A stretch of DNA of 64,000 nt from Sphingomonas sanxanigenens DSM 19645 = NX02 (GTDB taxonomy: Bacteria; Pseudomonadota; Alphaproteobacteria; Sphingomonadales; Sphingomonadaceae), in NCBI RefSeq assembly GCF_000512205.2, contig NZ_CP006644.1, positions 1,364,001-1,428,000 on the forward strand, in the 5' to 3' direction. Shown piece by piece: positions 27,331-58,877 of this stretch. Positions within the stretch are counted from its first letter, which is position 1; every line of letters starts with the position of its first letter. The translations under genes and the position numbers were made by a program. The notes below the pieces were generated by a model. It did not search any database. It was not told the DNA's origin and worked only from the letters and a program-made list of their open reading frames with translations.

Positions 27331-28245
27331 TCAGTTGGAGATCGTCCGCACCGCGAACGCCGCCGCCGCCGCGCGGGTCTCGACGCCGAGCTTCTCGAAG
27401 ATCTGTTCGAGATGCTTGTTCACGGTGCGCGGGCTGATGCCCAATATCTCGCTGATCACGCGGTTGGGCTTGCCATAGCTGATCCACAGCAGCACCTCCG
27501 CCTCGCGCAGGGTGAGCGCGTAGCGATCCTGCAGGCGCTGCACGTCGGCGCCCTGGCGCATCACGTTGAGGCGGATGAGGATCTCGTCGTGGCGCGCGCG
27601 GGTGACGAGCACGAGTTCGATCGTCGCGTCGCCGACGTCGACCTTGCTGCTGCCCGCGGACGGATCGGCGAGCAGCCGCAGCAAGGCGGGCATGATCGCC
27701 TCGGGCGGGGCGGCGCGCTCACGCGACCAGAGCGGGTCGATCTGCGTCAGCTCGCGCTCGGCCTGGGGGGTGCACCAGCGCTGGCGGCCCGCGCCGTCGA
27801 CCGCGATCAGGTGGCGGCCGGTGGCGTCGAGCGCGATCTGGCTGCCATGGCTGATGCGGGCGTTGGCGAGGTGGACGCGCACCCGCGCCAGCAATTCCTC
27901 GACCACGATCGGCTTGCGCACATAATCGACGCCGCCCGCATCCAGCGCCTCGACGACATGCTCGCTCTCGGTCAGCCCGGTCATGAAGATCACCGGGATA
28001 TGCGCCCAGGCGGCGTTGCGCTTGATCGCGCGCGTTGTTTCGAACCCGCCCATGCCGGGCATCACCGCGTCCATCAGGATCAGCCCCGGGGTGATATGAT
28101 CGAGCAGTTCCACCGCATTCTCGCCATTGGTGGCGATCAGCGCGGTCATGCCGGCGCGGTCGATCGTGTCGGTCAGGAAGCGCAGCGTTTCGGGCGTGTC
28201 GTCCACCACGAGCACGGTTTCGCGCGGATGCGGGTCAGCGGGCAT
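27331..28245 (-). CDS. LuxR-type response regulator (CrbR-like)
   Basis: A 304-residue two-component regulator. The receiver starts at VLVVDDTPETLRFL, with the phospho-Asp in LILMDAVMPGMGG near residue 59 and Lys in DYVRKPIV. A middle region of about 100 residues follows, then a LuxR/NarL helix-turn-helix: LTLREAEVLLWISYGKPNRV and SPRTVNKHLEQIFEKLGVE. The ATG at 28245 is 5 bases after the kinase stop, so the pair is cotranscribed at the end of the urease operon. I infer that it binds the 18-bp element found before five units in this region. Confidence 0.9.
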   Translation of the reverse strand: MPADPHPRETVLVVDDTPETLRFLTDTIDRAGMTALIATNGENAVELLDHITPGLILMDAVMPGMGGFETTRAIKRNAAWAHIPVIFMTGLTESEHVVEALDAGGVDYVRKPIVVEELLARVRVHLANARISHGSQIALDATGRHLIAVDGAGRQRWCTPQAERELTQIDPLWSRERAAPPEAIMPALLRLLADPSAGSSKVDVGDATIELVLVTRARHDEILIRLNVMRQGADVQRLQDRYALTLREAEVLLWISYGKPNRVISEILGISPRTVNKHLEQIFEKLGVETRAAAAAFAVRTISN

Positions 28246-28250
28246 GGGAG

Positions 28251-31200: not shown

Positions 31201-31640
31201 ACGCCGAACATCGCCCGCAGAGCGACCGCCATGATGCTCGCCTCGACCGAGAAGAGCAGGAAGGTGAAGGAGGCGTAGATCAGCGAGGTGATCGTCGAGC
31301 CGAGATAGCCGAAGCCGGCGCCGCGGGTCAGCAGGTCGATGTCCAGCCCGTGGCGGGCGGAGTGATAGGCGATCGGGAAGCCGATCGCGAACATCAGCAC
31401 CACGGCGGCGAGGATCGCCGCGACGCTGTTGGAAAAGCCGTAGGTCAGGGTGATCGCAGCGCCGATCGCCTCGCAGGCGAGGAAGGCGCTGGCGCCGATC
31501 GCGGTGTTGGCGACCTTCGCGGCGGACCATTTGCGGGCATGGTCGGCGGTGTAGCGCAGGGCATAGTCTTCCAGCGTCTGGCTGGCCGCCCATTTGTTGT
31601 AGAGCCGCTTCTCGCGGTAGATGTAGGCGGGCTGCTTCAT
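28251..31640 (-). CDS. NCS1 permease-like domain fused to hybrid histidine kinase and receiver
   Basis: A 1,129-residue fusion. Residues 1-480 are a polytopic domain resembling NCS1 purine/cytosine permeases ([17 protein letters not shown] opening, [20 protein letters not shown] region). Next comes a linker with eight cysteines in C-x2-C pairs (about 497-545; [13 protein letters not shown]), probably metal-binding, then two more membrane helices. The kinase core has [16 protein letters not shown] (His near 682), [23 protein letters not shown] and [13 protein letters not shown] receiver starts near 920 with Asp in [10 protein letters not shown], and a helical tail follows. It overlaps ureG by ATGA. 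The layout parallels CbrA/CrbS, where a solute-symporter domain is fused to a kinase. A nitrogen-containing ligand is inferred, not shown. Confidence 0.9.
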
Positions 31641-33509: not shown

Positions 33510-35218
<1,709 letters not shown>

Positions 35219-35222
<4 letters not shown>

Positions 35223-35837: not shown

Positions 35838-36701
35838 TCAGCAATACCAAACGGCTGGGAGGCGGGCCGGCAGGGCGAGCGCCGCGGCGCGCAGCGCCGA
35901 CGCGGCGCGCATGACGCGGTCGCGCAATGCGCGGGCATCGGCATCGATCAGCCGCAGGATGAGCAATTCGTCCATTGCGGTCGCCCCACCGGAGGGCGCG
36001 CCGGCGAGCGCGCGGCCCAGGTCCAGATGGTCGGCGGCGTCGGCGCCCGCATAGACGATCGTCGCGATCGCGCGCGCGCCGCCGAAGCCGAACGGGCGGT
36101 CGGCGGTCGCGGCGAAATCGCCGTCGACATGCAGCGCATCCGCCCACACCAGCCGCCCGCCGCGGCGGATCCGCCACGCGTCATGGATCAGCCCCGTCGC
36201 AAAGGTCTCGCCCATCGCGCTGCGGCCGAAGACGAGGCTTTCCACCGCGAGCATCCTTGCCGCCGGGCCGAGATCGACCTGCAGGCTGCGGCGCACGCGG
36301 CTGCGATCGAACAGGATCGCTTCCTGCGCCAGCCATTCGCAGACGCCGGCCTCACCGATCTCGATGCGCGTCTCGATGCGGATGTCGGGATCGTCGGGCA
36401 GCACGCGATAGAGCTTCTCGGCCGCCTGCGTGGTGACGGCGCCGCGCGCATGCGCATCCACCGCGATCTCCAGCCGCACGCGGTCGCCGCCGGTCAGCCC
36501 GCCGCTGGTGGTGATCGACACGGCCTGGCGCAGGTCGCCGGGCTCGGTGTCGGGAAACAGAAGCCGGCAGGGGGAGCGCTGGTAGAGGTCGCGGATGCCA
36601 TCTGCCCCGAACGCCACCCGCGCATGGCCGTCGACCCGCTGGTGCCGCGACGGCGAAGCCGGCGGGCGGATGACGGTGTGAGCGGGCGGGCTATGCTCCA
36701 T
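35838..36701 (-). CDS. ureD: Urease accessory protein UreD (UreH)
   Basis: A 287-residue scaffold for nickel insertion and first gene of the urease operon. [47 protein letters not shown] and the FGRSAMGE segment match UreD. The chosen ATG 36701 lies about 33 bases after the shared 18-bp element and only 6 bases after its -10-like hexamer, so the message may be leaderless. An upstream in-frame start would have to begin before this promoter. Confidence 0.93.
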
Positions 36702-36734
36702 GATCCGGTATTGCGGGGCGCGGAACGCGCCCGG

Positions 36735-36752
36735 CATGGGGCATTTGACGTA
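36735..36752 (-). promoter_or_regulatory. Shared 18-bp element, urease operon promoter
   Basis: Reads TACGTCAAATGCCCCATG towards ureD. A -10-like AATACC follows after 22 bases, and the ureD ATG begins 6 bases after that. The same element, in the same orientation relative to the gene, occurs before four other units in this window, so a common activator overlapping the -35 region is likely. Confidence 0.75.
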
Positions 36753-36786: not shown

Positions 36787-38268
36787 TCAGCTCCGGTTGC
36801 GCTTCGCCGGCGCCGGCTTCGCATAGGCCGGATCGACCTTCTCCGCCTTGCCCTCGCGCGCCGCCTTCTCGCCCGCCCCCGGCTGCATATGCTCGGTCGT
36901 CAGATCCGAGAGGAAGCCGGGCTGGGTGATGCCCTTCTTGCGCATCGCGACGCCGGTCAGGCAGGCGTGCATGATGAAATTGGCGTTGAGCGGCGTGCGA
37001 TAGGTCGGGTCGAGCTGCGGCGCGACCTCGACGATCTCGAAGCCGACCAGTTCGTTCTCCGCGCACAGCCGCCGCACGATCGGCAGCGCCTCGCGCATCG
37101 TCAGGCCGCCGGGCACGGGGGTGCCGGTGCCGGGGATGAAGGCGGGGTCGAGCACGTCGACGTCGAAGCTGACATAGAGCTTCTTTCCGCTTTCCCGCGC
37201 CTCCTTCAGCGCGCGTTCCATCACCGCCTGCCAGCCGCTTTTCTCCACCTCGGGCATCGCGTGGTAGCGCACGCCGTTGTTGCGCATCCATTCGAACCCC
37301 TCGGCGCCCGGCCATGGTCCGCGCAAGCCGACCTGGATGTAATTCTTGCCGAGGACATGGCCTTCCTTGACCGCGCGATAGACCGGGGCGCCATGGGTGA
37401 TGAAGTGCACGCCCTCACGCCCGGCGTCATAGTGCGAGTCGAAGTGGACGACGCCGAAGCTGCCCTTGCCATGCACGTCGGCGAGGCCGGCCACGTCCGA
37501 ATATTCGAGGCTGTGGTCACCGCCGACGATGAACGGGATCGCGCCGGTGCGCGCGATCTCGGCGACGCGCTCGCGCACGTGGTGGACGGTGCGCTCGGTG
37601 CTCATATTGTCGACGGCGATGTCGCCATAGTCGACGATGTTGAGCTCCTCCGAGGGGTCGACCATCGTGTACATGTCGATGCCGCCCGCGCCATATTGCG
37701 CGCGCAGCGACTGCGGCCCCAGCTTGGCGCCGCGATAGCCCGATCCCATGTCGAGCGGCGCGCCGACGATCGCGACATCGACCTTGCCCGCGACCAGATC
37801 CTCGGGATAGATCGCCACCGGCGCGCCGGCGAAGGTGGCGATGCCGCCGCCCCAGTCGCGCATATAGTAGCTGAGCGAGAAGGGCCCCGGTTCACGCCTG
37901 GGATCGAAGGTCTTGGGCCGCATCGTCTTCCACGCGTTGAAGCGCGGATTGTCGGTTTCGAGCGGGATCGAGGCCATGTCGGTCTCGGGCTTGAACTTGT
38001 ACGCCTCCACCACGGCCATCATGCCGTCGATATAGGCTTCGATCTGCTCGGGGTTCTTGTCCTTGAACCGTTCGAACAATTTCTCGGGCTTGCCAAACCC
38101 TTCCGACTTTTCGGAGAGCAGGAAGTCACGCTTTTCCTTGGGAATGGACTTCAGTTTGGCTTCCAGCCAGGCGGGAGGCTTGGGCTTTTCCTCGCCGATC
38201 GCGATGCTCGCGCTGCCGAGTGCGGCGCCCGCCAGCAACACCCCGACGACGACCTGCTTGAGCTTCAT
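36787..38268 (-). CDS. Exported arginase/agmatinase-family ureohydrolase, paralogue 1
   Basis: A 493-residue protein with a signal peptide (MKLKQVVVGVLLAGAALGSASIAIG), an about 100-residue Lys/Glu-rich N-terminal extension, then an arginase fold. Manganese or nickel ligands are in VGGDHSLEY (about 249), HFDSHYDAG (about 277; DSHYD where the family usually has DAHxD) and SFDVDVLDPAF (about 367), followed by PGTGTPVPGGLT. The family splits guanidino compounds to urea and an amine. Substrate is not predictable: agmatine, guanidinobutyrate and guanidine are all possible. GGAAGG supports ATG 38268. It has its own copy of the 18-bp element and lies directly upstream of ureD. A periplasmic site is inferred from the leader. 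Confidence 0.88.
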   Translation of the reverse strand: MKLKQVVVGVLLAGAALGSASIAIGEEKPKPPAWLEAKLKSIPKEKRDFLLSEKSEGFGKPEKLFERFKDKNPEQIEAYIDGMMAVVEAYKFKPETDMASIPLETDNPRFNAWKTMRPKTFDPRREPGPFSLSYYMRDWGGGIATFAGAPVAIYPEDLVAGKVDVAIVGAPLDMGSGYRGAKLGPQSLRAQYGAGGIDMYTMVDPSEELNIVDYGDIAVDNMSTERTVHHVRERVAEIARTGAIPFIVGGDHSLEYSDVAGLADVHGKGSFGVVHFDSHYDAGREGVHFITHGAPVYRAVKEGHVLGKNYIQVGLRGPWPGAEGFEWMRNNGVRYHAMPEVEKSGWQAVMERALKEARESGKKLYVSFDVDVLDPAFIPGTGTPVPGGLTMREALPIVRRLCAENELVGFEIVEVAPQLDPTYRTPLNANFIMHACLTGVAMRKKGITQPGFLSDLTTEHMQPGAGEKAAREGKAEKVDPAYAKPAPAKRNRS

Positions 38269-38334
38269 CCGCCTTCCCCCCGTTCGATCCATCATGACGA
38301 TCGCGAGCAGGCTAGGGCCGGTCCGTGACGGCGC

Positions 38335-38352
38335 CATGGGGCGATTGACGTA
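38335..38352 (-). promoter_or_regulatory. Shared 18-bp element, arginase-family gene 1
   Basis: Reads TACGTCAATCGCCCCATG towards the gene, 66 bases before its ATG. TAGCCT follows after 20 bases (38309-38314) as the likely -10 hexamer. Confidence 0.72.
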
Positions 38353-40344: not shown

Positions 40345-40812
40345 TTATGCGACATCCGGCGTCACATCCTTGATCACCGTCTTCAGCGGCGCGAAATTGC
40401 CGAACAGCCCGCGCAGGTCGGCGCGGCGGCTGAGCACGTCGGCCAATGTGTAGCGGTCGAGCACGGCGAGGAAGGCCTGCGTCGCTTCGTTGAGGATGCG
40501 GGGCAAGGTGCAGGCGGGCGCGATCAGGCATGAACTGCAATCGACGAGGTCGAAGCCGGTTTCGGTATGGCGGACGATCGCGCCGATCGTGATGTCCCCG
40601 GCCGGGCGGCCCAGCTTGAGGCCGCCGTTGCGGCCGCGCACCGCGGTGACGAACCCCGCCTGGTTCAGATCCTGGACGATCTTCTTCAGCGTATCCTTCG
40701 AGATGTCATAGACCTGCGCAATCTCGGCGATCGACGACAGATCCCCCTCGTCGCGCGCGCCGACATGGAGGAGCACGCGGACGGCATAGTCGGTGTAGCG
40801 GGTCAACTGCAC
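40345..40812 (-). CDS. nsrR: Rrf2-family regulator, NsrR-like
   Basis: A 155-residue winged-helix repressor. MQLTRYTDYAVRVLLHVGA and AQVYDISKDTLKKIVQDLNQAGFV form the DNA-binding part, followed by GRNGGLKLGRPA. Three cysteines (DCSSCLIAPACTL, about residues 92-102) match the iron-sulfur ligands of NsrR, which senses nitric oxide. The ending FLAVLDRYTLADVL is also NsrR-like. It lies next to alternative oxidase and haemoglobins, with two NsrR-like operators nearby, which supports the name. Confidence 0.88.
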   Translation of the reverse strand: MQLTRYTDYAVRVLLHVGARDEGDLSSIAEIAQVYDISKDTLKKIVQDLNQAGFVTAVRGRNGGLKLGRPAGDITIGAIVRHTETGFDLVDCSSCLIAPACTLPRILNEATQAFLAVLDRYTLADVLSRRADLRGLFGNFAPLKTVIKDVTPDVA

Positions 40813-40909
40813 GGACGGGCACCGAGGACAGGCATCGTCCCTTCATGACGTGCAGGACGGCCCGGCTCAAGCCGGACCGTCCCGACGGTGCGATCCATGG
40901 CGTAGGGCT

Positions 40910-41590
40910 TCAAGCCGCGACTCTCACATCGTCGGCATGTTCGGGGTAGGGTGCGATCCGCCCCGGCGCCTGCCCGCCGAGCTCATCGGCGAAGCCATGG
41001 TTGACGTCGCGGTGATGCGCCTCGTCCGCGCGCACCTTGAGCACGACGTCGCGCAGCGTCGCATCCGCCGGCAGCTTCCAGTAATGCAGCGCGATCGCGG
41101 GGGCAGGGCCGTCGGCGATGGCGCCCGCGTCGATCGCCTGCAGGAAGTGGGTGTAGCTGATTACCGCCTCCTCCTCGAAATAGCCGACGACGCGGTGCGC
41201 AACCCGCGGCGCGACCAGATAAAGCGCGAAGAAGGCGGTGTAGAATCCCGCCTGCACCAGCAGGATCAGCAGCCGCTCGAGCATGTTCGGCTGCGCCACC
41301 GCGACGAAGGTCATCAGGTGCATCCGCTCATTTTCGGCTTCCTCCATCAAGGTGCGGATCCAGCCATTATCGTCCACCATGCGGCGCAGGCACTTCAGGT
41401 GGGTCAGCGTGGCGCCGACCATGCCCGGCACCGCCGCGACGGTTTCGATCACGATCGCGCGATGGCCGTGGCGCTGCCGGAACAGCAGGTCGGCGAAGAA
41501 CCGCATGGTCTTGGTGAAGCCCCACGCCACGCGGTCACCCAGATCCGCGGGCCGGCGATGCTCGATGCTCACTGCAACATGGTCGATCAT
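40910..41590 (-). CDS. Alternative (ubiquinol) oxidase
   Basis: A 226-residue di-iron quinol oxidase. It passes electrons from ubiquinol to oxygen without pumping protons and resists nitric oxide and cyanide. The iron ligands lie in the four conserved boxes: [37 protein letters not shown] and [12 protein letters not shown]. Two hydrophobic stretches (about 45-60, 100-130) fit monotopic membrane attachment. GGGAG precedes ATG 41590. An NsrR-like palindrome at 41682 lies in its promoter, consistent with induction when nitric oxide blocks the normal oxidases. Confidence 0.95.
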
Positions 41591-41681
41591 TTCAAAATCT
41601 CCCTGTCAGCGCGGCGCGTCAGGAGGGCGAGTCGCGAAAGGTGCAGATCATTTATCTCTTTCGGGATCCTCACGCAATGAA

Positions 41682-41704
41682 AAGGTGCTGTTGACATGCA
41701 CCTT
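41682..41704. promoter_or_regulatory. NsrR-like operator 1
   Basis: A 23-base inverted repeat AAGGTGC-N9-GCACCTT, close to the known NsrR/Rrf2 pattern AAGATGC-N9-GCATCTT. It lies between the divergent alternative oxidase and haemoglobin genes. Confidence 0.7.
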
Positions 41705-41717
41705 ATCGCGGCCACAT

Positions 41718-41740
41718 AAAGTGCATGTGATTAGCACCTT
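41718..41740. promoter_or_regulatory. NsrR-like operator 2
   Basis: A second 23-base copy, AAAGTGC-N9-GCACCTT, ends 15 bases before the truncated haemoglobin ATG. The two sites start 36 bases apart. Confidence 0.68.
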
Positions 41741-41755
41741 ATAGGATCGACTCCG

Positions 41756-42139
41756 ATGACCCGTCCTCCGTTGATCGACGAAGCGGCGCTGCGCCCGCTG
41801 ATCGAGCATTTCTACCAACGCGTGCGCGGCGACGCGCTGCTCGGCCCCGTCTTCGCCGCTGCCGTCCATGACTGGGACGACCATCATGCGCGGCTCGCCG
41901 ATTTCTGGTCGTCGGTGATGCTGACGACGGGGCGCTACAAGGGCAATCCGGTCGCGCTCCACCTGATCCATGCCGACAGCATGACGCCCGAGCGCTTCGC
42001 GCGGTGGCTGACGCTGTGGCGCCAGACCACCGACGAGCGGCTCGATCCCGCCGCGGCCGCCGCGATGCAGGCCAAGGCCGCGCGCATCGCCGAGAGCCTG
42101 CAACTCGCCGTCCAGTATCGCCGGCCCGCCGCGGCCTGA
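41756..42139 (+). CDS. Group III truncated haemoglobin
   Basis: A 127-residue small haem protein. LIDEAALRPLIEHFYQRVRG, LLGPVFAAAVHDWDDHHARLADFWSSV and GNPVALHLIHADSM fit group III (TrHbP) globins, with the proximal His in the later helix. Such proteins bind oxygen or nitric oxide and commonly sit with flavohaemoglobin under NsrR control, as here. It is 24 bases upstream of hmp on the same strand. Confidence 0.9.
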   Translation: MTRPPLIDEAALRPLIEHFYQRVRGDALLGPVFAAAVHDWDDHHARLADFWSSVMLTTGRYKGNPVALHLIHADSMTPERFARWLTLWRQTTDERLDPAAAAAMQAKAARIAESLQLAVQYRRPAAA

Positions 42140-42163
42140 TCATCGACCCACAAGGAGACCGAC

Positions 42164-43372
42164 ATGTCATTGACCCCCGCGACGATCGCCATCGTCAAGG
42201 CCACCGTTCCCGCGCTTGCCGAACATGGCACGGCGATCACCACCGCCATGTATGCGCGGCTGTTTCAGGACGCGCATATCAAGGCGCTGTTCAACCATGC
42301 CAACCAGGGCGAAAGCGGCGCGCAGGTCCATGCGCTGGCCGCTGCGATCCTCGGCTATGCGCAGAACATCGAGAATCTCGGCGCGCTCGCGCCGGTGGTC
42401 GAGCGGATCGCCTACAAGCATGTCGGCTATCACATTCTGCCCGAACATTATCCCTATGTCGCCAATGCGCTGCTCGCGGCGATCAAGGAGGTGCTGGGCG
42501 ATGCCGCGACCGACGAGATATTGGCGGCGTGGGGCGAAGCCTATTGGTTCCTGGCCGACATCTTGAAGGCGCGCGAGGTGGTGCTGCGCGGCGAGATCCT
42601 CGCGGCGGAGGGCGGCTGGGAAGGCTGGCGCCGGTTCGTGGTGGCGGAGAAGATCCGCGAAAGCGGCACGATCACCTCGTTCATCCTGAAACCCGAGGAT
42701 GGCGGGCCGGTGCTGCGCCACAAGCCCGGCCAGTATCTGACCTTCCGGCTGAAGCCGCGGGGACGCCCCGAACTGAAGCGCAACTATTCGATCTCCTGCG
42801 GGCCCAATGGCGCCTTCTACCGCATTTCGGTGAAGCGCGAGGCGGACGGGCAGGGCGGGTCGCGTTTCCTGCATGATGATGTCGCGGTCGGCGACGTGCT
42901 GGAAACGACGCCGCCCGCCGGCGATTTCTACCTCGGCGATGCGCCGCAGCGCCCGGTCATCCTCCTGTCCGGCGGTGTCGGGCTGACGCCGATGGTGAGC
43001 ATGGCGGAGGCGATCGCGCGCGATCACCCGCATGTCGAGGCACATTATGTCCACGGCACGCTCAACAGCGAGACGCATGCGATGGACGCGCATGTCCAGG
43101 ACCTCGCAGCGACCTGCCCGTCGCTCACCGTGACGACCTTCTACAGCGATCCGCTGTCGCACGACCGCCTTGGCGAGACGCATCATGGCGAAGGCTTCAT
43201 CGCGATCGACTGGCTGAAGCGCCACACGCCGCTGCTGGAGGCGGACGTCTTCCTGTGCGGCCCCAAGCCCTTCCTGCGCGCGTTCGTTTCGGGGCTGGCG
43301 CTCGCCGGCGTGCCGGCCGGCCGCATCCATTACGAGTTCTTCGGCCCCGCCGACGAACTGATGGCGGCTTAG
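42164..43372 (+). CDS. hmp: Flavohaemoglobin, nitric oxide dioxygenase
   Basis: A 402-residue enzyme turning nitric oxide plus oxygen into nitrate with NAD(P)H. The globin domain (1-140) has LFNHANQGESGAQ, the proximal His in RIAYKHVGYHILPEHYPYV and the reductive-site tyrosine nearby. The FAD domain (about 150-260) has HKPGQYLTFR and RNYSISCGPN. The NAD domain has ILLSGGVGLTPMVSMAEA and CGPKPFLRAF. ACAAGGAGACC lies just upstream. Domain order and length are normal. Confidence 0.97.
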   Translation: MSLTPATIAIVKATVPALAEHGTAITTAMYARLFQDAHIKALFNHANQGESGAQVHALAAAILGYAQNIENLGALAPVVERIAYKHVGYHILPEHYPYVANALLAAIKEVLGDAATDEILAAWGEAYWFLADILKAREVVLRGEILAAEGGWEGWRRFVVAEKIRESGTITSFILKPEDGGPVLRHKPGQYLTFRLKPRGRPELKRNYSISCGPNGAFYRISVKREADGQGGSRFLHDDVAVGDVLETTPPAGDFYLGDAPQRPVILLSGGVGLTPMVSMAEAIARDHPHVEAHYVHGTLNSETHAMDAHVQDLAATCPSLTVTTFYSDPLSHDRLGETHHGEGFIAIDWLKRHTPLLEADVFLCGPKPFLRAFVSGLALAGVPAGRIHYEFFGPADELMAA

Positions 43373-43755: not shown

Positions 43756-45186
43756 TCAGCCGCGCGTCTTCTTCGCCTTCTTCTCACCCTTGGCCGGCTT
43801 GGGTGCCTGCCATTCGGAACTCAGCGGGCTCAGATAATGCTCCTCCCTGATCCCCTTCCTGCGGATCGAGAGGCCGGCCATGCAGGCGTGCATGATGTAG
43901 GCGCTGTTCTGCGCGGAGCGGTAGGTGGGGTCCATCGTCGGGTCGAGTTCGACCAGTTCGAAGCCGGCGAGGTCGGTCTCTGCGCAGATGCGGCGGATCA
44001 GCGGCACCACCTCGCGCATCGTCAACCCGTCCGGCACGGGCGTGCCGGTGCCGACCATATAGGCGGGATCGAGCACGTCGATGTCGAACGACACGAACAC
44101 GCGCTTGCCATTCTCCCGGGCTTCCTTGAGCACGCGGGTGACGACGGTGTCCCAGCCCGATTTTTCCACCTCCACCATCGTGTGATAGCGGAAGCCCTGC
44201 TCGCGCATCCATTCGAAGGTCTCGATGTCGGGGGACTGCGCGCGCAGGCCGACCTGGATATAGTCGCGGCCGGCGACATGGCCTTCCTTGATCAGGCGAT
44301 AGACCGGCTGGCCATGGTCGATCAGGTGCGCGCGGTCGCGCCCCGCATCATAATGCGAGTCGAAGTGGATCACGCTGACCTTGCCCTTGCCGAGCACGTC
44401 GGTGACGCCGGCGATATCCGAATAGGCGAGGCTGTGGTCGCCGCCGACGATGAAGGGCAGCGCCCCGGTGCTGGAGATCGACGCGACCATCTCGCGGACA
44501 TGCCCCATCGAGCGCTCGGTGCTCATATTGTCGACCGCGAAGTCGCCATAGTCGACCATGTTGAGCGTCGCGCGCGGTGAGGTCATCGTATACATGTCGT
44601 TGCCGGCGCCCATCCGCACCGTGCGCATCGCGGTCGGCCCCAGATGCGCGCCGCGGGTGCCCGACCCCATGTTGAGCGGAATGCCGACCATCGCGACGTC
44701 GACCTTGCCCGCCACCAGATCCTCGGGCGTCAGCGCCACCGGCAGGCCGAAGAAGGTCGGGATGCCGCTGCGCCCTTCCATGTAGCGGCCGAGCGAGAAA
44801 GGGCCGGGCTCGCGCCTGGGATCGAGCACCGCCGGCCGCAGCACCTTCCACGTGTTGAAATTCTTGGTGTCGGGGTTGAGCGGGATCGTCGGCGCGTCGG
44901 TCCTGGCGTTGAACTTCGAGGCTTCGACCACCTCCATCATCGCCGAGACATAGGCCTTGATCTCTTCGGGCGTCTTCTTCGCCAGCCGCCGTTCGAGCTC
45001 GCCCTCAACCGGCGCGAACTTGTTGACGTCCTTGGAGCGGAGGAACTTCAGTTCGGCGGCGCTGAGGCTGCCCAGTTTCGCCTCGATCTCGGGCGTGAAC
45101 CTTTTCTCGTTGCTCTGGGCGACGGCAAAGGAGGCGATGCCCGCCGTGGCCAGTGCCAGAACCGCCAATGTCTTCGCGACCTTCAC
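43756..45186 (-). CDS. Exported arginase/agmatinase-family ureohydrolase, paralogue 2
   Basis: A 476-residue paralogue of the enzyme at 36787-38268, with the same plan: signal peptide (VAKTLAVLALATAGIASFAVAQ), N-terminal extension of about 100 residues (KTPEEIKAYVSAMMEVVEASKF, compare KNPEQIEAYIDGMMAVVEAYKF in paralogue 1), then the arginase fold. Metal ligands are in VGGDHSLAY (about 247), HFDSHYDAG (about 276) and SFDIDVLDPAYM (about 366). The start is GTG 45186, chosen because GGAGG lies 7 bases upstream. The Lys-rich tail ends KKAKKTRG. Differences from paralogue 1 in the loop after GTGTPVP and around the substrate pocket suggest a different guanidino substrate, but this is inference. Confidence 0.87.
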   Translation of the reverse strand: MKVAKTLAVLALATAGIASFAVAQSNEKRFTPEIEAKLGSLSAAELKFLRSKDVNKFAPVEGELERRLAKKTPEEIKAYVSAMMEVVEASKFNARTDAPTIPLNPDTKNFNTWKVLRPAVLDPRREPGPFSLGRYMEGRSGIPTFFGLPVALTPEDLVAGKVDVAMVGIPLNMGSGTRGAHLGPTAMRTVRMGAGNDMYTMTSPRATLNMVDYGDFAVDNMSTERSMGHVREMVASISSTGALPFIVGGDHSLAYSDIAGVTDVLGKGKVSVIHFDSHYDAGRDRAHLIDHGQPVYRLIKEGHVAGRDYIQVGLRAQSPDIETFEWMREQGFRYHTMVEVEKSGWDTVVTRVLKEARENGKRVFVSFDIDVLDPAYMVGTGTPVPDGLTMREVVPLIRRICAETDLAGFELVELDPTMDPTYRSAQNSAYIMHACMAGLSIRRKGIREEHYLSPLSSEWQAPKPAKGEKKAKKTRG

Positions 45187-45291
45187 CCGTTTTCCTCCAC
45201 CCGATGCGCCCGGCCGTCCGCGCGCGCGACCAAAGGATCCACAGGGCGCCGGCGACCGCCGCGGGCTAGCATCGGCGCGGGTGGCCGCCTC

Positions 45292-45309
45292 TACGTCAAA
45301 CGCCCTATG
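45292..45309 (+). promoter_or_regulatory. Shared 18-bp element, MauD-like gene
   Basis: Reads TACGTCAAACGCCCTATG towards the MauD-like gene. AAGCCG lies 22 bases on, and the ATG follows after 6 bases. It also lies 105 bases upstream of the divergent arginase-family gene 2, which it might serve too. Confidence 0.7.
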
Positions 45310-45343
45310 GCTGCCCGCAACCCGCCGATCCAAGCCGCTCGCC

Positions 45344-45952
45344 ATGCTGATCGCATCGACCTTTCTGCTCTGGATCATGGTCGCGCTGCTCGTCGTCGCG
45401 GTGATTTCGCTCGCGCGGCAGGTGGGCACGCTCAACGATCGGCTCGCGCAGGCGGCGGGGCTTGTCGCCGAAGGCGGCCCGCGCGTGGGCGATCCCGCGC
45501 CGATGATCGCCGCGCCGGGGCTTGGCGGCGGCGTGGTCAATGTCGGCGGGCCGGATGCCGGAGGGCGGGCGGCGCTGCTGCTGTTCGTCACGCCGGATTC
45601 GCCGGTCTGCAAGGCGATCATCCCGGTGGCGATGATCCTCGCCCGATCGGAAGGGCTGCGGCTGGTGTTCGTCGGCGACGGCGACGCGCGAAACCTGGCG
45701 GCGATGGTCGACCGCTTCCGGATGACGGGGTTCGATTTCGCGCTGAGCGGGCAGGTCGTCGCGGCCTATCAGGCGAGCGTGCTGCCCTGGGGGGTGCTGA
45801 TCGGCGGGGACGGCCGAGTCCGCGCACGGGGCGCCGTCAGCGCGCGCGAGCATCTCGAAAGCCTGATCGCTGCGGGGGATGCGTGTGGCATCGGCGCGGG
45901 ATCGGGTAGTGACGATGCCAATGTCGTGCCGATGGCGATCGGCGCCGCATGA
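45344..45952 (+). CDS. MauD-like membrane-anchored thioredoxin-fold protein
   Basis: A 202-residue protein opening with MLIASTFLLWIMVALLVVAVISLARQVGTL, the signal anchor of MauD, the disulfide-handling accessory protein of methylamine dehydrogenase. GPRVGDPAPMIAAPGLGG leads into a thioredoxin fold. The active-site motif is SPVC (FVTPDSPVCKAIIPV) instead of the usual C-P-x-C, so one redox cysteine is missing. SVLPWGVLIGGDGRVRARG is the family's later segment. No methylamine dehydrogenase or mauE gene is in the window. The preceding 18-bp element ties it to the urea/guanidino group. Confidence 0.8.
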   Translation: MLIASTFLLWIMVALLVVAVISLARQVGTLNDRLAQAAGLVAEGGPRVGDPAPMIAAPGLGGGVVNVGGPDAGGRAALLLFVTPDSPVCKAIIPVAMILARSEGLRLVFVGDGDARNLAAMVDRFRMTGFDFALSGQVVAAYQASVLPWGVLIGGDGRVRARGAVSAREHLESLIAAGDACGIGAGSGSDDANVVPMAIGAA

Positions 45953-45960
45953 CGGGGCGA

Positions 45961-45988
45961 CCTCCCCGACGCGTCGCGCCGGGGAAGG
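45961..45988. terminator. Weak hairpin between convergent genes
   Basis: CCTCCCCG can pair with CGGGGAAGG (one bulge) between the MauD-like gene and urcA. It resembles the other intergenic hairpins in this window. Termination activity is unproven. Confidence 0.35.
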
Positions 45989-46003
45989 GGAAGGGGAAGG
46001 CGG

Positions 46004-46312
46004 TCAGTGCGCCGCGCTGATCACCACCGCTTCGGTGCCGGGGGTAACGCGCGCCCGCGCATCGGCGATGACCTCGGCACGGCACTGATTCGCCTTGCGC
46101 TGCATCGACAGATGGATCCGATAGGCGCCGTTGCCGCAGACCGCCTTGGCGGCACGGGTCAAGCGTGCGGTGAAGACGCGCTGACCCGCGGGGGTGGAGA
46201 GATCGAGATCTCCGACCCGCGTGGTCACGCTGTCTTCGGCTAGAGGGTTGTGGGCCAGCGCCGGCAACGGCGCGAGTGCCAGCCCGAAGGCCAGCACGAG
46301 GTGAAGCCGCAT
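46004..46312 (-). CDS. UrcA family protein
   Basis: A 102-residue exported protein. The signal peptide is MRLHLVLAFGLALAPLPALAH. TTRVGDLDLSTPAGQRVFTARLTRAAKAVCG is the UrcA pattern, with two cysteines (AVCGNG and NQCRAEV) likely forming a disulfide. AGGAG lies 7 bases before ATG 46312. The family is common in sphingomonads and caulobacters and has no established function. It is convergent to the MauD-like gene. Confidence 0.85.
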   Translation of the reverse strand: MRLHLVLAFGLALAPLPALAHNPLAEDSVTTRVGDLDLSTPAGQRVFTARLTRAAKAVCGNGAYRIHLSMQRKANQCRAEVIADARARVTPGTEAVVISAAH

Positions 46313-46444
46313 CCTTGATCTCCTGCGAATTTCCCCAGTCATTAAACGCCGGGGTGCGCGCTCCATATCACCGCCGGGCGCCTTCGCCAACAGCGCGTTT
46401 CGATGCCGCGAAATAAGCGGATTCCGCGCGCTTTCCCGGTCGCC

Positions 46445-46462
46445 TACGTCAAACGCCCCATA
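46445..46462 (+). promoter_or_regulatory. Shared 18-bp element, TonB-dependent receptor 2
   Basis: Reads TACGTCAAACGCCCCATA. TAGCCT follows after 22 bases (46485-46490). The rest of the gap 46313-46620, up to the receptor ATG, holds no gene and gives a leader of about 120 bases. Confidence 0.74.
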
Positions 46463-46620
46463 GGGGTCCCCCGGGGTGCGGGCATAGCCTCCCAGCGCCT
46501 GCCCATCCGCATCGGCCGTCCAGGAAGCCGCGGAGCCAGGGCGCCGGGGTCGATCACCCCACGAGAATGCCAGGGCAGGTGGGGAGATACCGATCGGACC
46601 AAGACAAGAAGGGGGAATTT

Positions 46621-49032
46621 ATGATGCGCCGATCTCTGACCAGCCGGAGCCTGCTGTCGGCCACCGCTCTCGGCACGCTGCTGATCGCAGCGCCCGTCGC
46701 AGCCCAGACCGCCGCTTCCGAAGACGCTGCCGCGCCTGTGCCGCAGGCGCCGGACGACGGGGATGACGTGATCATCGTCACCGGCACCCGCCGCGCGGTG
46801 TCGCTGCAGGATGCGCCGATCAACCTCACCGCGCTGTCGGGAGCGGAACTGCAGGACCAGCGGATCGACGACGTCCGCGACATCGCTGCCTTCTCGCCCG
46901 GCCTCACCATCCAGGATACCGGCCCGCGCAACACCGGCACCATCGTGATGCGCGGCCTGAGCGCCAGCGATACCGGCGATACCGGCGGCAACGCCGACAA
47001 TTCGCTCGCCACCTATCTCGGCGAAGTGCCGCTCTATCTCGATTTCAAGCTGCTCGACATCGACCGGGTCGAGGTGCTGCTCGGGCCGCAGGGCACGCTC
47101 TATGGCCTCGGCACGCTGGCCGGCGCGATCCGCTACATTCCCAACCGGCCGGATCCGGACAATTGGTCCGGCATGGCGCATGGCCGCATGTACGATGTCG
47201 CGCATGCCGATGATCCGGGCTTCAGCGTGGACGGCACGATCAACGTTCCGATCGTTCCGGGCGTGATCGCGCTGCGCTCGACGGTGGGTTACTACAACGA
47301 TCCCGGCTTCATCGATTACAAATATCTGGTGCGCGATCCGGGCGTCTCGCTGCCGCAGCCGAACAATCCGACCGGTTTCTTCGGCTCGATCGGCACGCCG
47401 CAGGAGGTCGCCGACAATCTCTACACCTACAAGGACGCCAATTTCGAGCATACTTTCACGACGCGCAACCAGCTCGGCATCTTCCCGGCGGACTGGCTGA
47501 ATGTCTATCTGACCTACGCCTATCAGGAAACGCAGACCAACGGCCGCCAGTCCAACGGCGGCGGCGTGTTCGGCACCGGCAAATATGAGGCGCCGTGGCG
47601 CTTCCTCGAGCCGTCGGACCGCAAGGCGCATCTGGTGAGCGCGGAGATCGAGGCGGACATCGGCAGCTTCGCGCAGTTCGTGTCGGCGACAGCCTATACC
47701 AAGCAGACGATCCAGAGCTCGGTGGACGTTACCGACCTGTTGCTCGACCTCGACTATGATTATGAGCTGTTCCCGGCCTTCGCCGGCTATACCCGCTCGG
47801 ACATCGACTATGAGCAGTTCAACCAGGAAGTGCGTTTCGTCTCCGCGCATGGCGGGCCGCTGAGCTGGGTGGTCGGCGGCTTCTATAACGAGCTCAAGCA
47901 GAACTCGACCTATTTCGAGATCCTGCCGGGCTATCCCGCCTATGCTGGCATCGATCGGCCGGACGAGATCGAATATGCCTCGTTCGTCGACAGCAAGACC
48001 ACCGAGAAGGCGGTCTATGGCGAACTCAGCCTCGAGCCGTTCGAGGGACTGCAACTCACCGCCGGCGGCCGCTATTTCGATTACAAGGCGGATGTGGTCG
48101 GCGGGCAGGCGCTGCCGCTCTTCCAGCCGTTCCCGGAAATCAACTACCGCAGCCGCGCCGGCAACACCAAGGACGATGGCTTCGTCTGGAAGTTCAACGG
48201 CTCGTACAAGTTCGGCGAGGAACTGATGGTCTATGCGACCTACAGCAAGGGCTATCGCATCGGCGGCGTCAACCGCGTGGCGCCGTGCGCGCTGCCGCTG
48301 CCGCCGGGGCAGAACCTCTGCGCGCTACCCGACGAGCTCGTCTACGCGCCGGACGAGGTGAAGAATGTCGAAGTCGGCATGCGCTGGTCGCTGTTCGAGC
48401 GGCGCTTCACCGGCAGCCTCGCCGCCTATCATATCGACTGGACGGGCATCCAGCTCGACGGCCTGACCGAGAATGGCGCGATCGGCATCACCGTCAACGG
48501 CGGCAAGGCCGTGTCGAAGGGCGTCGAGCTGACCGTCCAGTTGCGGCCGATCGAAGGGCTGACGATGAGGGGCAACTATGCCTACAACGATGCCCACCTC
48601 ACCGAGGAGGTGCCGGGCCTGATCAAGTTCCGCGGCGGCGAGGTGGATGCCGAGCCGGGCGATCGCCTGCCGGGTTCCACCAAGAATTCGGGCGCGGTGG
48701 GGGCGACCTACACCTTGCCGGTCGGCGACACCTCCGACATCGCGGTCAACTGGACGATGACCTATACCGGCAACATCCTCACCCGCGTCGGCGCCCGTGG
48801 CTTCGGCGAAAAGCTGCCCAGCTTCGTCACCCACCGCGCCTCCATCGCCTACAGCAAGGAGGATTGGGAGATCCGGCTGTTCGCCGACAACCTGTTCGAC
48901 AAATATGCCGTCGCCTCGGTGGGTAATGATCTCAGCCGCCGCTTCGTCAACGACGGCGTCGTTTCCCGCTACTACGCGCGCACGGTGATCCCGCCGCGCC
49001 GGGTGGGCGTGGAGATGACGAAGAAGTTCTGA
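46621..49032 (+). CDS. TonB-dependent outer-membrane receptor (urea/guanidino regulon)
   Basis: An 803-residue receptor of the large sphingomonad type. The signal peptide ends APVAAQ. A TonB-box-like DDVIIVTGTRR lies at about residue 52. The plug has DVRDIAAFSPGLTIQD, IVMRGLSA, VEVLLGPQGTLYGLGTLAGAIRYI. The barrel ends with RRVGVEMTKKF, a terminal Phe as expected. GGGGGAAT precedes ATG 46621; an upstream in-frame ATG lacks a leader. The 18-bp element suggests its ligand is a nitrogen source used by this regulon, possibly a guanidino compound or a metal complex such as nickel. Confidence 0.93.
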   Translation: MMRRSLTSRSLLSATALGTLLIAAPVAAQTAASEDAAAPVPQAPDDGDDVIIVTGTRRAVSLQDAPINLTALSGAELQDQRIDDVRDIAAFSPGLTIQDTGPRNTGTIVMRGLSASDTGDTGGNADNSLATYLGEVPLYLDFKLLDIDRVEVLLGPQGTLYGLGTLAGAIRYIPNRPDPDNWSGMAHGRMYDVAHADDPGFSVDGTINVPIVPGVIALRSTVGYYNDPGFIDYKYLVRDPGVSLPQPNNPTGFFGSIGTPQEVADNLYTYKDANFEHTFTTRNQLGIFPADWLNVYLTYAYQETQTNGRQSNGGGVFGTGKYEAPWRFLEPSDRKAHLVSAEIEADIGSFAQFVSATAYTKQTIQSSVDVTDLLLDLDYDYELFPAFAGYTRSDIDYEQFNQEVRFVSAHGGPLSWVVGGFYNELKQNSTYFEILPGYPAYAGIDRPDEIEYASFVDSKTTEKAVYGELSLEPFEGLQLTAGGRYFDYKADVVGGQALPLFQPFPEINYRSRAGNTKDDGFVWKFNGSYKFGEELMVYATYSKGYRIGGVNRVAPCALPLPPGQNLCALPDELVYAPDEVKNVEVGMRWSLFERRFTGSLAAYHIDWTGIQLDGLTENGAIGITVNGGKAVSKGVELTVQLRPIEGLTMRGNYAYNDAHLTEEVPGLIKFRGGEVDAEPGDRLPGSTKNSGAVGATYTLPVGDTSDIAVNWTMTYTGNILTRVGARGFGEKLPSFVTHRASIAYSKEDWEIRLFADNLFDKYAVASVGNDLSRRFVNDGVVSRYYARTVIPPRRVGVEMTKKF

Positions 49033-56491: not shown

Positions 56492-56509
56492 TACGTCAAA
56501 TGACGCATA
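56492..56509 (+). promoter_or_regulatory. Shared 18-bp element, urea transporter operon
   Basis: Reads TACGTCAAATGACGCATA towards urtA, the most divergent copy in its second half. TAGCCT follows after 22 bases (56532-56537). The divergent PPIase gene starts 76 bases away on the other side. Confidence 0.7.
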
Positions 56510-56605
56510 TCGATGCACCCGGCCGATTACCTAGCCTCGCGGCGATACGGTGGGCGGGGCCGCTCTTGCCGATCTGCATCCCAAGCGTTCGAGGAGTGAG
56601 GTGAG

Positions 56606-57829
56606 ATGGTGCTTCGGTCGGCGAAGATCCTGTTTCTGACGGCCGCGGTCTCCGCGCTGGCGCTGGCCGGCTGCTCGAAGGGCGGCGGCGGCGACGGCGG
56701 CGCGCCCGCGGGCGATACCGTGTCGGTGGGGGTGCTGCAGTCGCTGACCGGTACGATGGCGATCAGCGAGATCACCGTGAAGAATGCCGAGATGCTGGCG
56801 ATCGAAGAGATCAACGCGGCGGGCGGCGTGCTCGGCAAGACGATCAACGCGCTGGTCGAGGACGGCGCGTCGGATCCCTCCACCTTCGCGCAGAAGGCGT
56901 CGAAGCTGGTGGAGGACGGCAAGGTCTCCACCGTGTTCGGCGGCTGGACCTCCGCCAGCCGCAAGGCGATGCTGCCGGTGTTCGAACGCACGGATAACCT
57001 GCTGTGGTATCCGGTGCAGTTCGAGGGCAATGAATGCTCGCCCAACATCATGTATTCGGGCGCGCAGCCCAACCAGCAGATCCTGCCTGCGTTCGAATGG
57101 GCAAAGGAAAAGGGTTACAAGAACATCTTCCTGATCGGCTCGGACTATGTGTTTCCGCGCACCGCCAACCTGATCCTCAAGAAGCATATCGAAAAGGGTG
57201 GCCTCGGCGTCGCGGGCGAGGCCTATGTGCCATTGGGCGGGACCGATTTCTCCGGCGTGATCGCCAAGATCCGGGCGGCCAAGCCGGACATCGTCTTCAA
57301 CACGCTGAACGGTGACAGCAATGTCGCCTTCTTCAAGCAGATGCAGGCCGCCGGCCTGACCTCGAAGACGCTGCCGGTGATGTCCTTCTCGATCGGCGAG
57401 CAGGAAGCGCAGGCGATGGGCGCCGGGCTGGTGGAGGGCAGCTATGCCGCCTGGAACTATTTCCAGAGCCTCGACCTGCCGGGCAACGCCAGGTTCGTCG
57501 CGGCCTACAAGAAGAAATATGGCGCGGACGCCGCGATCACCGATCCGATGGTGCATGGCTATCTGAACGTGTGGGCGTGGAAGGCCGCAGTCGAGAAGGC
57601 GGGCAGCTTCGATCCGGCGGCGGTGCGCAAGGCGGCGGCGTCGCTCGGCGGGTTCGAGACGCCGATGGGCAAGGTCTCCTTCGCGGCGAACCAGAGCCTC
57701 GTGCAGAAGGCCTATATCGGCCAGCTCAAGCCCGACGGCCAGTTCGCGATCGTCGCGGACTCGGGCGCCGACATCCAGCCGGAGCCCTATGACGCGCTCG
57801 CCTTCCCCGGCAAGACGTGCAAGCTGTGA
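56606..57829 (+). CDS. urtA: Urea ABC transporter substrate-binding lipoprotein
   Basis: A 407-residue periplasmic-binding lipoprotein. ALALAGCSKGG is the lipobox with Cys at about residue 23. The mature part begins VSVGVLQSLTGTMAISE and contains ASRKAMLPVFERTDNLLWYPVQFEGNECSPNI, characteristic of UrtA/FmdD proteins that bind urea or short amides. It ends PEPYDALAFPGKTCKL, also a UrtA trait. GAGTGAGG lies upstream. It is the first gene of urtABCDE and is preceded by the 18-bp element. Urea as ligand follows from the family and from the urease context. Confidence 0.93.
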   Translation: MVLRSAKILFLTAAVSALALAGCSKGGGGDGGAPAGDTVSVGVLQSLTGTMAISEITVKNAEMLAIEEINAAGGVLGKTINALVEDGASDPSTFAQKASKLVEDGKVSTVFGGWTSASRKAMLPVFERTDNLLWYPVQFEGNECSPNIMYSGAQPNQQILPAFEWAKEKGYKNIFLIGSDYVFPRTANLILKKHIEKGGLGVAGEAYVPLGGTDFSGVIAKIRAAKPDIVFNTLNGDSNVAFFKQMQAAGLTSKTLPVMSFSIGEQEAQAMGAGLVEGSYAAWNYFQSLDLPGNARFVAAYKKKYGADAAITDPMVHGYLNVWAWKAAVEKAGSFDPAAVRKAAASLGGFETPMGKVSFAANQSLVQKAYIGQLKPDGQFAIVADSGADIQPEPYDALAFPGKTCKL

Positions 57830-57843
57830 AGGGCACGGAGCAG

Positions 57844-57977
57844 CCCCTCCCCTTCAGGGGAGGGGACGGGGCGGGGCAGCGTCGGCGGGGGCTCAACGCC
57901 GCCGGCGACGCTCTTTCCGCTGCCGCAGAAGCGCGCTTCGCCCCCCACCCCAACCCCTCCCCTGAAGGGGATGGGCG
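57844..57977. repeat. Palindromic repeat element between urtA and urtB
   Basis: CCCCTCCCCT-TC-AGGGGAGGGG forms a perfect hairpin at 57844-57865. A related inverted copy (ACCCCTCCCCTGAAGGGGAT) lies at about 57953-57972. The two ends can also pair with each other. It looks like a dispersed intergenic repeat and may lower expression of urtBCDE relative to urtA. Confidence 0.6.
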
Positions 57978-57983
57978 CGTGGC

Positions 57984-58877
57984 ATGACCGACCTCCCGCT
58001 CGTCCTCAACCAGCTGTTCAACGGCGTCTCGGTCGCATCGCTCTACCTCCTCGCCGCGCTCGGCCTGGCGCTCAGCTTCGGGCTGATGCGCGTCGTCAAC
58101 ATGGCGCATGGCGAGATGCTGATGCTGGGCGGCTATCTCGCCTGGCTGACGCTGATCGTCGTCCCCGGCCCGGCCGGCATCCTCGTCGCGATCCCGGTGG
58201 CGTTCGCGGGCGCCGCGGTTGCGGGCGGGGTGATCCAGACGGCGCTGATCTCGCGCCTCGCCGCGCGGCCGCTCGATACGCTGCTGGCGACCTGGGGCGT
58301 CAGCCTGATCCTGCAGCAGGCGGCGCGCGACCTGTTCGGCGCGATCGGCGTCGAGGTGCGCGCGCCGGACTGGCTTTCGGGCGGCATCACCGTCGCCGGC
58401 ATCGCCATGCCCTCGGCGCGGCTGTTCATCATCGGCGTGACGGTGGCGGTGCTCGCCGCGCTCGCGCTGCTGCTGGCGCGAACGCGGATCGGGCTGTTCG
58501 TGCGCGCGGTCAATCAGGACCGGATGATGGCAGGGGCCACCGGCATCGACGTGCGCCGCGTCGATCTTGCCGTCTTCTGCCTCGGATCGGGCATTGCCGG
58601 GCTGGCCGGCGTGGTGCTGGCGCTGCTCGGCCCGGTTACGCCCACGGTCGGGCAGAGCTATATCGTGCCGGCGTTCCTCGTCGTCGTGATGGGCGGCCTC
58701 GGCAGCCTCGTCGGCACCACCGTCTCGGCGGTTATCCTCGGCCTGTTCTCGGCGCTGGTGCAGATCTTCGTCGATGTCAGCGCGGCGCAGATGCTGCTGC
58801 TGCTGTTCGTCATCCTCTTCATCCAGATCCGTCCGCAGGGCGTGGTCGCGGTCAAGAGCCGCGCGCTCGATGTCTGA
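57984..58877 (+). CDS. urtB: Urea ABC transporter permease UrtB
   Basis: A 297-residue LivH-type permease with eight hydrophobic helices. LNQLFNGVSVASLYLLAALGLAL and MRVVNMAHGEMLMLGGYLAW are the family's opening; VRAVNQDRMMAGATGID is the coupling-loop region; GQSYIVPAFLVVVMGGLGSLVGT closes it. The GQSYIVPAF-type ending distinguishes UrtB from amino-acid LivH. It is shorter than UrtB forms that carry an extra periplasmic domain. It overlaps urtC by 8 bases. Confidence 0.93.
   Translation: MTDLPLVLNQLFNGVSVASLYLLAALGLALSFGLMRVVNMAHGEMLMLGGYLAWLTLIVVPGPAGILVAIPVAFAGAAVAGGVIQTALISRLAARPLDTLLATWGVSLILQQAARDLFGAIGVEVRAPDWLSGGITVAGIAMPSARLFIIGVTVAVLAALALLLARTRIGLFVRAVNQDRMMAGATGIDVRRVDLAVFCLGSGIAGLAGVVLALLGPVTPTVGQSYIVPAFLVVVMGGLGSLVGTTVSAVILGLFSALVQIFVDVSAAQMLLLLFVILFIQIRPQGVVAVKSRALDV

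What the first reader, a model, noticed from the sequence alone, without database searches (positions are those of the whole stretch)
45344..45952. MauD-like protein without methylamine dehydrogenase, with SPVC active site
MauD normally matures methylamine dehydrogenase with MauE. Here it stands alone, one of the redox cysteines is Ser, and its promoter carries the urea-regulon element. It may have been recruited to serve an exported enzyme of the regulon, for instance an arginase-family hydrolase.
Basis: partly seen in the sequence, partly recalled or inferred. Interest (0 to 1): 0.5.

Follow-up and report, generated by a model that had tools for sequence, protein, structure and literature searches.

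The report
Orphan remnant of lost amine-dehydrogenase operon
A stranded helper gene whose enzyme partners have been lost still sits behind the promoter it once shared with urea-metabolism genes, and its relatives show that this gene group can include a whole amine-oxidising enzyme system.

Summary
The ORF at 45344-45952 (+) is a real MauD homologue with SPVC where the 83 other rows of one alignment have CxxC. Its promoter element occurs four times in the genome, all in this window. It is best read as a relic, not as a chaperone recruited by the arginase-family hydrolases. In three relatives (G030, G093, G098 = Pacificimonas aurantium) the homologous mauD lies in a complete mauBEDA-cytochrome operon beside the same urease genes, with the element near mauB (weak in G030). 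MAG UBA6171 keeps mauD among ruins: truncated mauE, mauA fragment with a stop, cytochrome fragment. G251 has hydrolases, urease and element but no mauD. The window gene has lost 9 of 31 near-invariant MauD residues (others: mean 0.29, maximum 3), yet its frame is intact, so a residual role is not excluded. The genome has another complete mau cluster 1.8 Mb away without the element. MauD is absent from 12 of 18 genomes with the hydrolase, though ten of these are one genus. Boldest lead: the intact relatives may encode an undescribed periplasmic ureohydrolase + amine dehydrogenase + urea import + urease module.

The parts
45344..45952 (+). orphan mauD-like gene, 202 aa: N-terminal helix, thioredoxin-like domain, SPVC instead of CxxC, divergent low-confidence C-terminus
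45292..45310 (+). promoter element TACGTCAAACGCCCTATGG, ending 33 nt before the mauD ATG
46445..46463 (+). same element upstream of the TonB receptor gene
38334..38352 (-). same element upstream of ureohydrolase 1
36734..36752 (-). same element upstream of ureD
56492..56510 (+). variant element TACGTCAAATGACGCATAT upstream of urtA, identical in UBA6171 (L040:12742)
43756..45189 (-). arginase-family ureohydrolase 2, divergent from mauD; signal-peptide-like start (by eye); arginase-type metal motifs GGDHS, FDSHYD, SFDIDVLDP present (motifs recalled)
36787..38268 (-). arginase-family ureohydrolase 1; signal-peptide-like start (by eye); metal motifs present
35838..36701 (-). ureD, urease accessory gene at the head of the urease genes
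   Evidence: named from sequence knowledge and place; 53-63% identical in five relatives
33510..35222 (-). ureC, urease alpha subunit
   Evidence: named from sequence knowledge; 81-86% identical in four relatives
46624..49032 (+). TonB-dependent receptor following mauD
56606..58877 (+). urtA and urtB, urea-type ABC importer genes (named from sequence knowledge)

Best explanation
The gene is a relic: the last surviving gene of a mauBEDA-cytochrome operon that encoded a periplasmic TTQ amine dehydrogenase and belonged, under one promoter element, to a gene group with ureohydrolases, urease, urea import and a TonB receptor. In this lineage mauB, mauE, mauA and the cytochromes were deleted, leaving the old promoter directly in front of mauD. 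The encoded protein still has the N-terminal helix and thioredoxin fold but has lost the nucleophilic cysteine and many MauD-specific positions, so it should not do normal dithiol-disulfide exchange; its former client, the cysteine-rich MauA of that operon, is gone. Shown: the synteny series across genomes, the element positions, absence of mauA/mauB/mauE at the locus, loss of conserved residues, intact frame. Inferred: the order of losses, that the element works as a regulator site, loss of catalytic activity, and that the gene is largely or wholly without its former function.
For: Intact state: G030, G093 and G098 carry mauB-E-D-A plus cytochrome c next to ureD/ureC; in G030 and G098 the ureohydrolase is divergent from mauB. 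Element near mauB in G098 (2 mismatches), G093 (1), L042 (2) and, weaker, G030 (3). Intermediate: UBA6171 (L040) has element, truncated mauE, mauD with CPIC, mauA fragment with an in-frame stop, cytochrome fragment without CxxCH, then TonB, and no MauA or MauB match in the 2.0 Mb held of it. Absent state: G251. Tree: the window MauD groups with these MauDs and two of Gluconacetobacter in a set of 8 rows at SH-aLRT 100, the genome's second MauD outside. Constraint: 9 of 31 near-invariant positions lost against mean 0.29, maximum 3 in 83 others; 11 of 41 and 15 of 51 at laxer thresholds, maximum 4 and 6 in others. Rate: MauD/UreD ML distance ratios 1.14-1.37 for the four pairs with the window, 0.70-1.09 for the six without. 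TIGR02661 bits 131 against 187, 177 and 159 in three relatives.
Against: The frame is intact over 202 codons with coding-like GC by codon position (0.76/0.52/0.85). In a neutral simulation to 29% amino-acid change only 19% of 400 runs never met a stop, indels ignored (47% at 15% change), which mildly favours some remaining constraint. The element is well placed, 33 nt before the ATG, as for ureD in three genomes (31-34 nt). Cis-Pro148 and Cys89 are kept, as in all 84 rows. The window row is long-branched, so its exact place within the clade is unsure.
Confidence: 0.68

Rival explanations
1. The gene has been kept for a new, non-redox or monothiol role in the gene group, for instance holding or quality-controlling an exported protein (TonB receptor, ureohydrolase) or acting through Cys89 and the second cysteine, Cys181.
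For: Intact frame and retained element at a spacing like that of ureD; thioredoxin-like fold predicted, 10-residue blocks at pLDDT 88 or more over residues 1-30 and 51-180, lower at 31-50; UBA6171 also keeps an intact mauD while its mauA and mauE are broken. MauD/MauE homologues without mau genes are thought to serve other ends in Streptomyces gene clusters (PMC7794033, passages seen).
Against: Hydrolase and element occur without MauD in G251; hydrolases and TonB receptor have 2 Cys each; lost residues are those conserved in MauD generally; no second SPVC case in 84 rows or in the further loci read.
Confidence: 0.23
2. The protein still serves an amine dehydrogenase, namely the second mau cluster at C1:3.23 Mb, as an extra maturation factor.
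For: A complete mauBEDA cluster is present in the same genome.
Against: That cluster has its own MauD with CPLC, no element within 4 mismatches in the 20-kb stretch, and the two MauDs lie on different sides of a fully supported branch.
Confidence: 0.04
3. Recruited as a thiol chaperone of the arginase-family hydrolases.
For: Divergent neighbour with a shared intergenic region; both in one promoter group.
Against: Hydrolases occur without MauD in 12 of 18 genomes, 3 of 9 genera, contain two cysteines, and the first redox cysteine of the protein is gone.
Confidence: 0.05

Closest known systems
MauD, methylamine dehydrogenase accessory protein (NCBIfam TIGR02661)
   Same: Sequence descent, N-terminal helix, thioredoxin-like domain, cis-Pro and second active-site Cys
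   Different: First active-site Cys is Ser, 9 of 31 near-invariant positions changed, score below the family cut-off, no mauA/B/E at the locus
mauBEDA-cytochrome operons beside urease genes in G030, G093 and G098 (Pacificimonas aurantium DSM 107782)
   Same: Same place relative to ureD and, in G030 and G098, a ureohydrolase; same promoter element, weak in G030
   Different: There the operon is complete; the window keeps mauD only
Eroding mau operon of Sphingomonadales MAG UBA6171 (L040)
   Same: Order element, mauD, TonB receptor beside two divergent ureohydrolases
   Different: mauD still has CPIC; remains of mauE, mauA and a cytochrome are still readable there
ResA/TlpA-type membrane-anchored thiol-disulfide oxidoreductases
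   Same: Fold: 396 PDB matches at E up to 0.001, thiol-disulfide oxidoreductases such as ResA at the top
   Different: No dithiol motif; by sequence the best PDB match has E 0.44
MauE/MauD homologues in Streptomyces candidate RiPP clusters (PMC7794033, passages seen)
   Same: Mau maturation homologues without the rest of a mau cluster
   Different: Different context; the authors suggest a function outside methylamine metabolism

Membership tests
MauD (TIGR02661) | score over the curated cut-off of 188.6 bits | tested here: not met
   131.3 bits; G098's MauD (L009, 186.6) and the genome's own second MauD (L002, 159.2) also fall short, so the cut-off alone is not decisive
MauD (TIGR02661) | dithiol active site CxxC | tested here: not met
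   SPVC; 83 of 84 rows have the first Cys
MauD (TIGR02661) | conserved MauD core residues | tested here: not met
   9 of 31 near-invariant positions changed
MauD (TIGR02661) | N-terminal helix followed by thioredoxin-like domain | tested here: met
   model with mean pLDDT 85.3, helix 2-41; Foldseek ResA-like matches; that the helix is a membrane anchor is inferred
MauD (TIGR02661) | descent from within MauD | tested here: met
   set of 8 rows at SH-aLRT 100 in an 84-row tree, quick method, no test of a single clade run
MauD (TIGR02661) | gene beside mauA, mauB and mauE | tested here: not met
   none at the locus; one match each for MauA and MauB in the genome, 1.8 Mb away
MauD (TIGR02661) | needed for maturation of the amine dehydrogenase small subunit | not testable with these tools
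   -
ResA/TlpA-type thiol-disulfide oxidoreductase | CxxC at the N-terminus of the active-site helix | tested here: not met
   Ser86 just before and Cys89 inside helix 87-103
urea/ureohydrolase promoter group | element TACGTCAAAnnCCCyATGG upstream of the gene | tested here: met
   exact match at 45292-45310; that it binds a regulator is not shown

The most novel reading that the evidence does not exclude
The orphan marks an undescribed periplasmic module: a TonB receptor brings in a guanidino-amine (agmatine-like), exported ureohydrolases split it into urea and an amine, a co-regulated TTQ amine dehydrogenase oxidises the amine while feeding electrons to cytochromes c, and the Urt importer plus urease take up and use the urea, all under one promoter element; the dehydrogenase part has been lost in some lineages, here leaving mauD.
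Probability: 0.45. Interest if true: 0.6.

Novelty: new variant of a known kind. Interest (0 to 1): 0.4.

Why it matters
As a gene, the orphan mauD is probably a leftover. As a fossil it is useful: it points to intact relatives in which an amine dehydrogenase, ureohydrolases, urea import and urease lie together with one promoter element. My literature searches in the held library showed no paper on this combination (six papers holding three of four terms, none on it by title and start of abstract; none, listings only: none on it by title). Most subscription papers are not held. That gives a concrete, testable proposal for how some sphingomonads dismantle guanidino compounds outside the cytoplasm, and shows in one series how such a module erodes.

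Tried and rejected
Recruitment as arginase chaperone: set aside on co-occurrence, cysteine counts and loss of the active site; the co-occurrence count is weaker than it looks because ten of the twelve MauD-less genomes are one genus (g100), and I therefore raised this rival from 0.04 to 0.05, the new-role rival from 0.22 to 0.23, and lowered the relic from 0.70 to 0.68 on checking. Recent duplicate of the genome's other mauD: set aside, different clades. Sequencing error as cause of Ser: unlikely, two base changes. Hidden remnants of mauA, mauB, mauE or cytochromes near the window gene: tblastn of 45101-46700 gave only matches at E 0.03 or worse besides MauD and TonB. SPVC survey: no second case in 84 rows, nor among the family and class loci read; 8 further matches had no locus and were not read, and the 80 genome-contig loci are the best of 233. 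G299 has a MauD with CPIS, second Cys lost, at the start of a 5.8-kb contig beside a mauE match; its hydrolase gene is on another contig, so linkage is unknown. dN/dS was not attempted: no other genome of the genus is held and the available pairs are distant. The MauD/UreD rate comparison has few taxa and trees of different shape; G030 (L133) is long-branched in both genes. UBA6171 is a MAG of 2.0 Mb, so absence of mauA/mauB there is weaker evidence. In L042 no mauE match was found and the contig ends just upstream of the element, so its link with urease is unknown. In the 18-genome element search at up to 1 mismatch, 9 genomes had sites, but the reversed control also gave one site each in three genomes, so single sites in G299, G322, G341 and G509 may be chance. 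The genomes were samples drawn by the tool. No signal-peptide program was available; 'exported' is read from the N-termini.

Full report
1. The observation. The ORF at 45344-45952 (+) is present, 202 aa. It matches TIGR02661 MauD (E 2.8e-38, 131.3 bits, cut-off 188.6), has no Pfam match at E up to 0.001, and has SPVC where MauD has CxxC. In an alignment of 84 MauD sequences (window; the genome's second MauD, L003; L038, L039 and L133 from relatives; and 79 of the 80 genome-contig loci, L041 dropped as the same contig as L038) the first Cys is present in 83, the window alone having Ser; the second Cys and the cis-Pro are present in all 84. The 80 loci are the best of 233. The codon is TCG against TGC/TGT in six compared genes.

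2. The promoter element. TACGTCAAACGCCCTATGG lies at 45292-45310, 33 nt before the ATG. Related sites lie before the TonB receptor gene (46445), ureohydrolase 1 (38334, -) and ureD (36734, -) (none in 100 shuffles). In the whole 6.58-Mb genome these four are the only ones at up to 2 mismatches, and the reversed control gave none. A variant, TACGTCAAATGACGCATAT, stands before urtA and is identical in UBA6171. Many sites have a CTAG-like stretch about 18-21 nt downstream, a possible -10; the window mauD site has CCAAGCC there (read by eye).

3. Mau genes elsewhere in the genome. A complete mauB-mauE-mauD-mauA cluster lies at C1:3.233-3.236 Mb, followed by a cytochrome c and genes that I recognise as a quinohemoprotein amine dehydrogenase set (names from sequence knowledge). 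It has no element within 4 mismatches in the 20-kb stretch.

4. Relatives show where the gene came from. A search of 298 genomes of the family found MauD homologues at E up to 1e-10 in 32, the window's genome included; the closest are in G098 (54%) and G093 (52%). In both, mauD lies in cytochrome-cytochrome-mauA-mauD-mauE-mauB, directly beside the urease genes from ureD on; G098 also has a ureohydrolase and the Urt importer there, while in G093 these lie about 20 kb away. G098's contig has the same length as Pacificimonas aurantium DSM 107782 contig 3. G030 has urease, two ureohydrolases and, divergent from them, mauB-E-D-A-cytochrome. The element lies near mauB in G098, G093 and L042 and, with 3 mismatches, G030. 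Among the 80 genome-contig loci the element at up to 2 mismatches occurs in three, L040, L041 and L042, all of this clade.

5. An intermediate and an empty state. In the MAG UBA6171 (L040) the order is ureD, ureohydrolase, ureohydrolase, divergent element, truncated mauE, mauD with CPIC, a mauA N-terminal fragment with an in-frame stop running into a cytochrome fragment without a CxxCH motif, then the TonB receptor. No MauA or MauB match was found in the 2.0 Mb held of its genome. G251 has urease, three ureohydrolases, Urt and the element but no MauD, MauA or MauB match. The window fits between UBA6171 and G251; the direction of change is inferred.

6. Phylogeny and constraint. A quick ML tree of 84 rows puts the window MauD with L040, L038, L133, L039, L042 and two Gluconacetobacter sequences (SH-aLRT 100); the genome's other MauD is outside. 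The window and L133 are long rows whose exact place is unsure. Of 31 positions conserved in at least 97% of the other sequences the window has lost 9; the other 83 lose 0.29 on average, at most 3. L133, with a longer branch (1.5 against 0.9), loses 1 of 29, so divergence alone does not explain it. MauD-to-UreD ML distance ratios are 1.14-1.37 for the four pairs that include the window and 0.70-1.09 for the six without it (computed by hand). Against full neutrality: the frame is open, GC by codon position looks coding, and of 400 neutral runs to 29% amino-acid change 19% never met a stop.

7. Structure. AlphaFold2 on a 30-sequence alignment gives mean pLDDT 85.3, a helix at 2-41, a thioredoxin-like domain with Ser86 just before and Cys89 inside the active-site helix 87-103, and a low-confidence tail from 183. 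Foldseek finds thiol-disulfide oxidoreductases such as ResA.

8. Against recruitment by the hydrolases. The hydrolase occurs (E up to 1e-60) in 5 of 298 family genomes and (E up to 1e-80) in 16 of 396 order genomes, the sets overlapping. Of the 18 distinct genomes, 12 have no MauD homologue at E up to 1e-8; they belong to 3 of 9 genera, ten being one genus (g100) whose neighbourhoods I did not read. G251 is the one with the element and urease shown. The window hydrolases and two of the three G251 copies have two cysteines each; the G098 ORF has a third near its first possible start; three MauA proteins have 14. The nearest solved relatives are guanidinobutyrase 3nio and 'probable agmatinase 2' 7esr; that the latter is a guanidine hydrolase is recalled.

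9. Reading. The most likely account is a relic of a lost TTQ amine-dehydrogenase operon of this gene group. A residual role cannot be excluded. The relatives with complete operons suggest a periplasmic route for guanidino-amines: ureohydrolase gives urea and amine, the dehydrogenase oxidises the amine, Urt and urease use the urea. That route is inference; no substrate is known and export of the hydrolases is read from their N-termini. [quoted passage not shown]

Noticed in passing
window 27334-28440 (-) and 28254-31544 (-): LuxR-type response regulator and a hybrid histidine kinase with a long N-terminal region beside the urease genes; similar ORFs by eye stand beside urease in G251 (L134:8366-12719) and a kinase-like one in G030 (L133:83-3406). 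Candidate regulator of the element.
   Followed up: partly
window 40345-43372: A cassette of an Rrf2-type regulator, alternative oxidase, truncated haemoglobin and flavohaemoprotein (alternative oxidase by Pfam; the others by sequence knowledge) lies between the two ureohydrolase genes, which are adjacent in UBA6171, G030 and G251.
   Followed up: no
L003:3761-12199 (G000:C1:3227760-3236198): A TTQ amine-dehydrogenase cluster is followed by genes resembling a quinohemoprotein amine dehydrogenase with a radical-SAM protein: two quinone amine dehydrogenases in tandem (second set named from sequence knowledge).
   Followed up: no
window 46004-46390 (-): UrcA-family protein (TIGR04433, 70.5 bits) between mauD and the TonB receptor gene.
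   Followed up: no
L046 and L050 (Gluconacetobacter johannae, G. azotocaptans): A mauBEDA operon of the same MauD clade with TonB receptor and UrtA/UrtB homologues within 10 kb and weak element-like sites (3-4 mismatches); no urease or hydrolase match in the stretch.
   Followed up: partly
L156 (G299:C70): A second degenerate MauD, with CPIS (second Cys lost), near a contig end in a genome that also has the hydrolase.
   Followed up: partly
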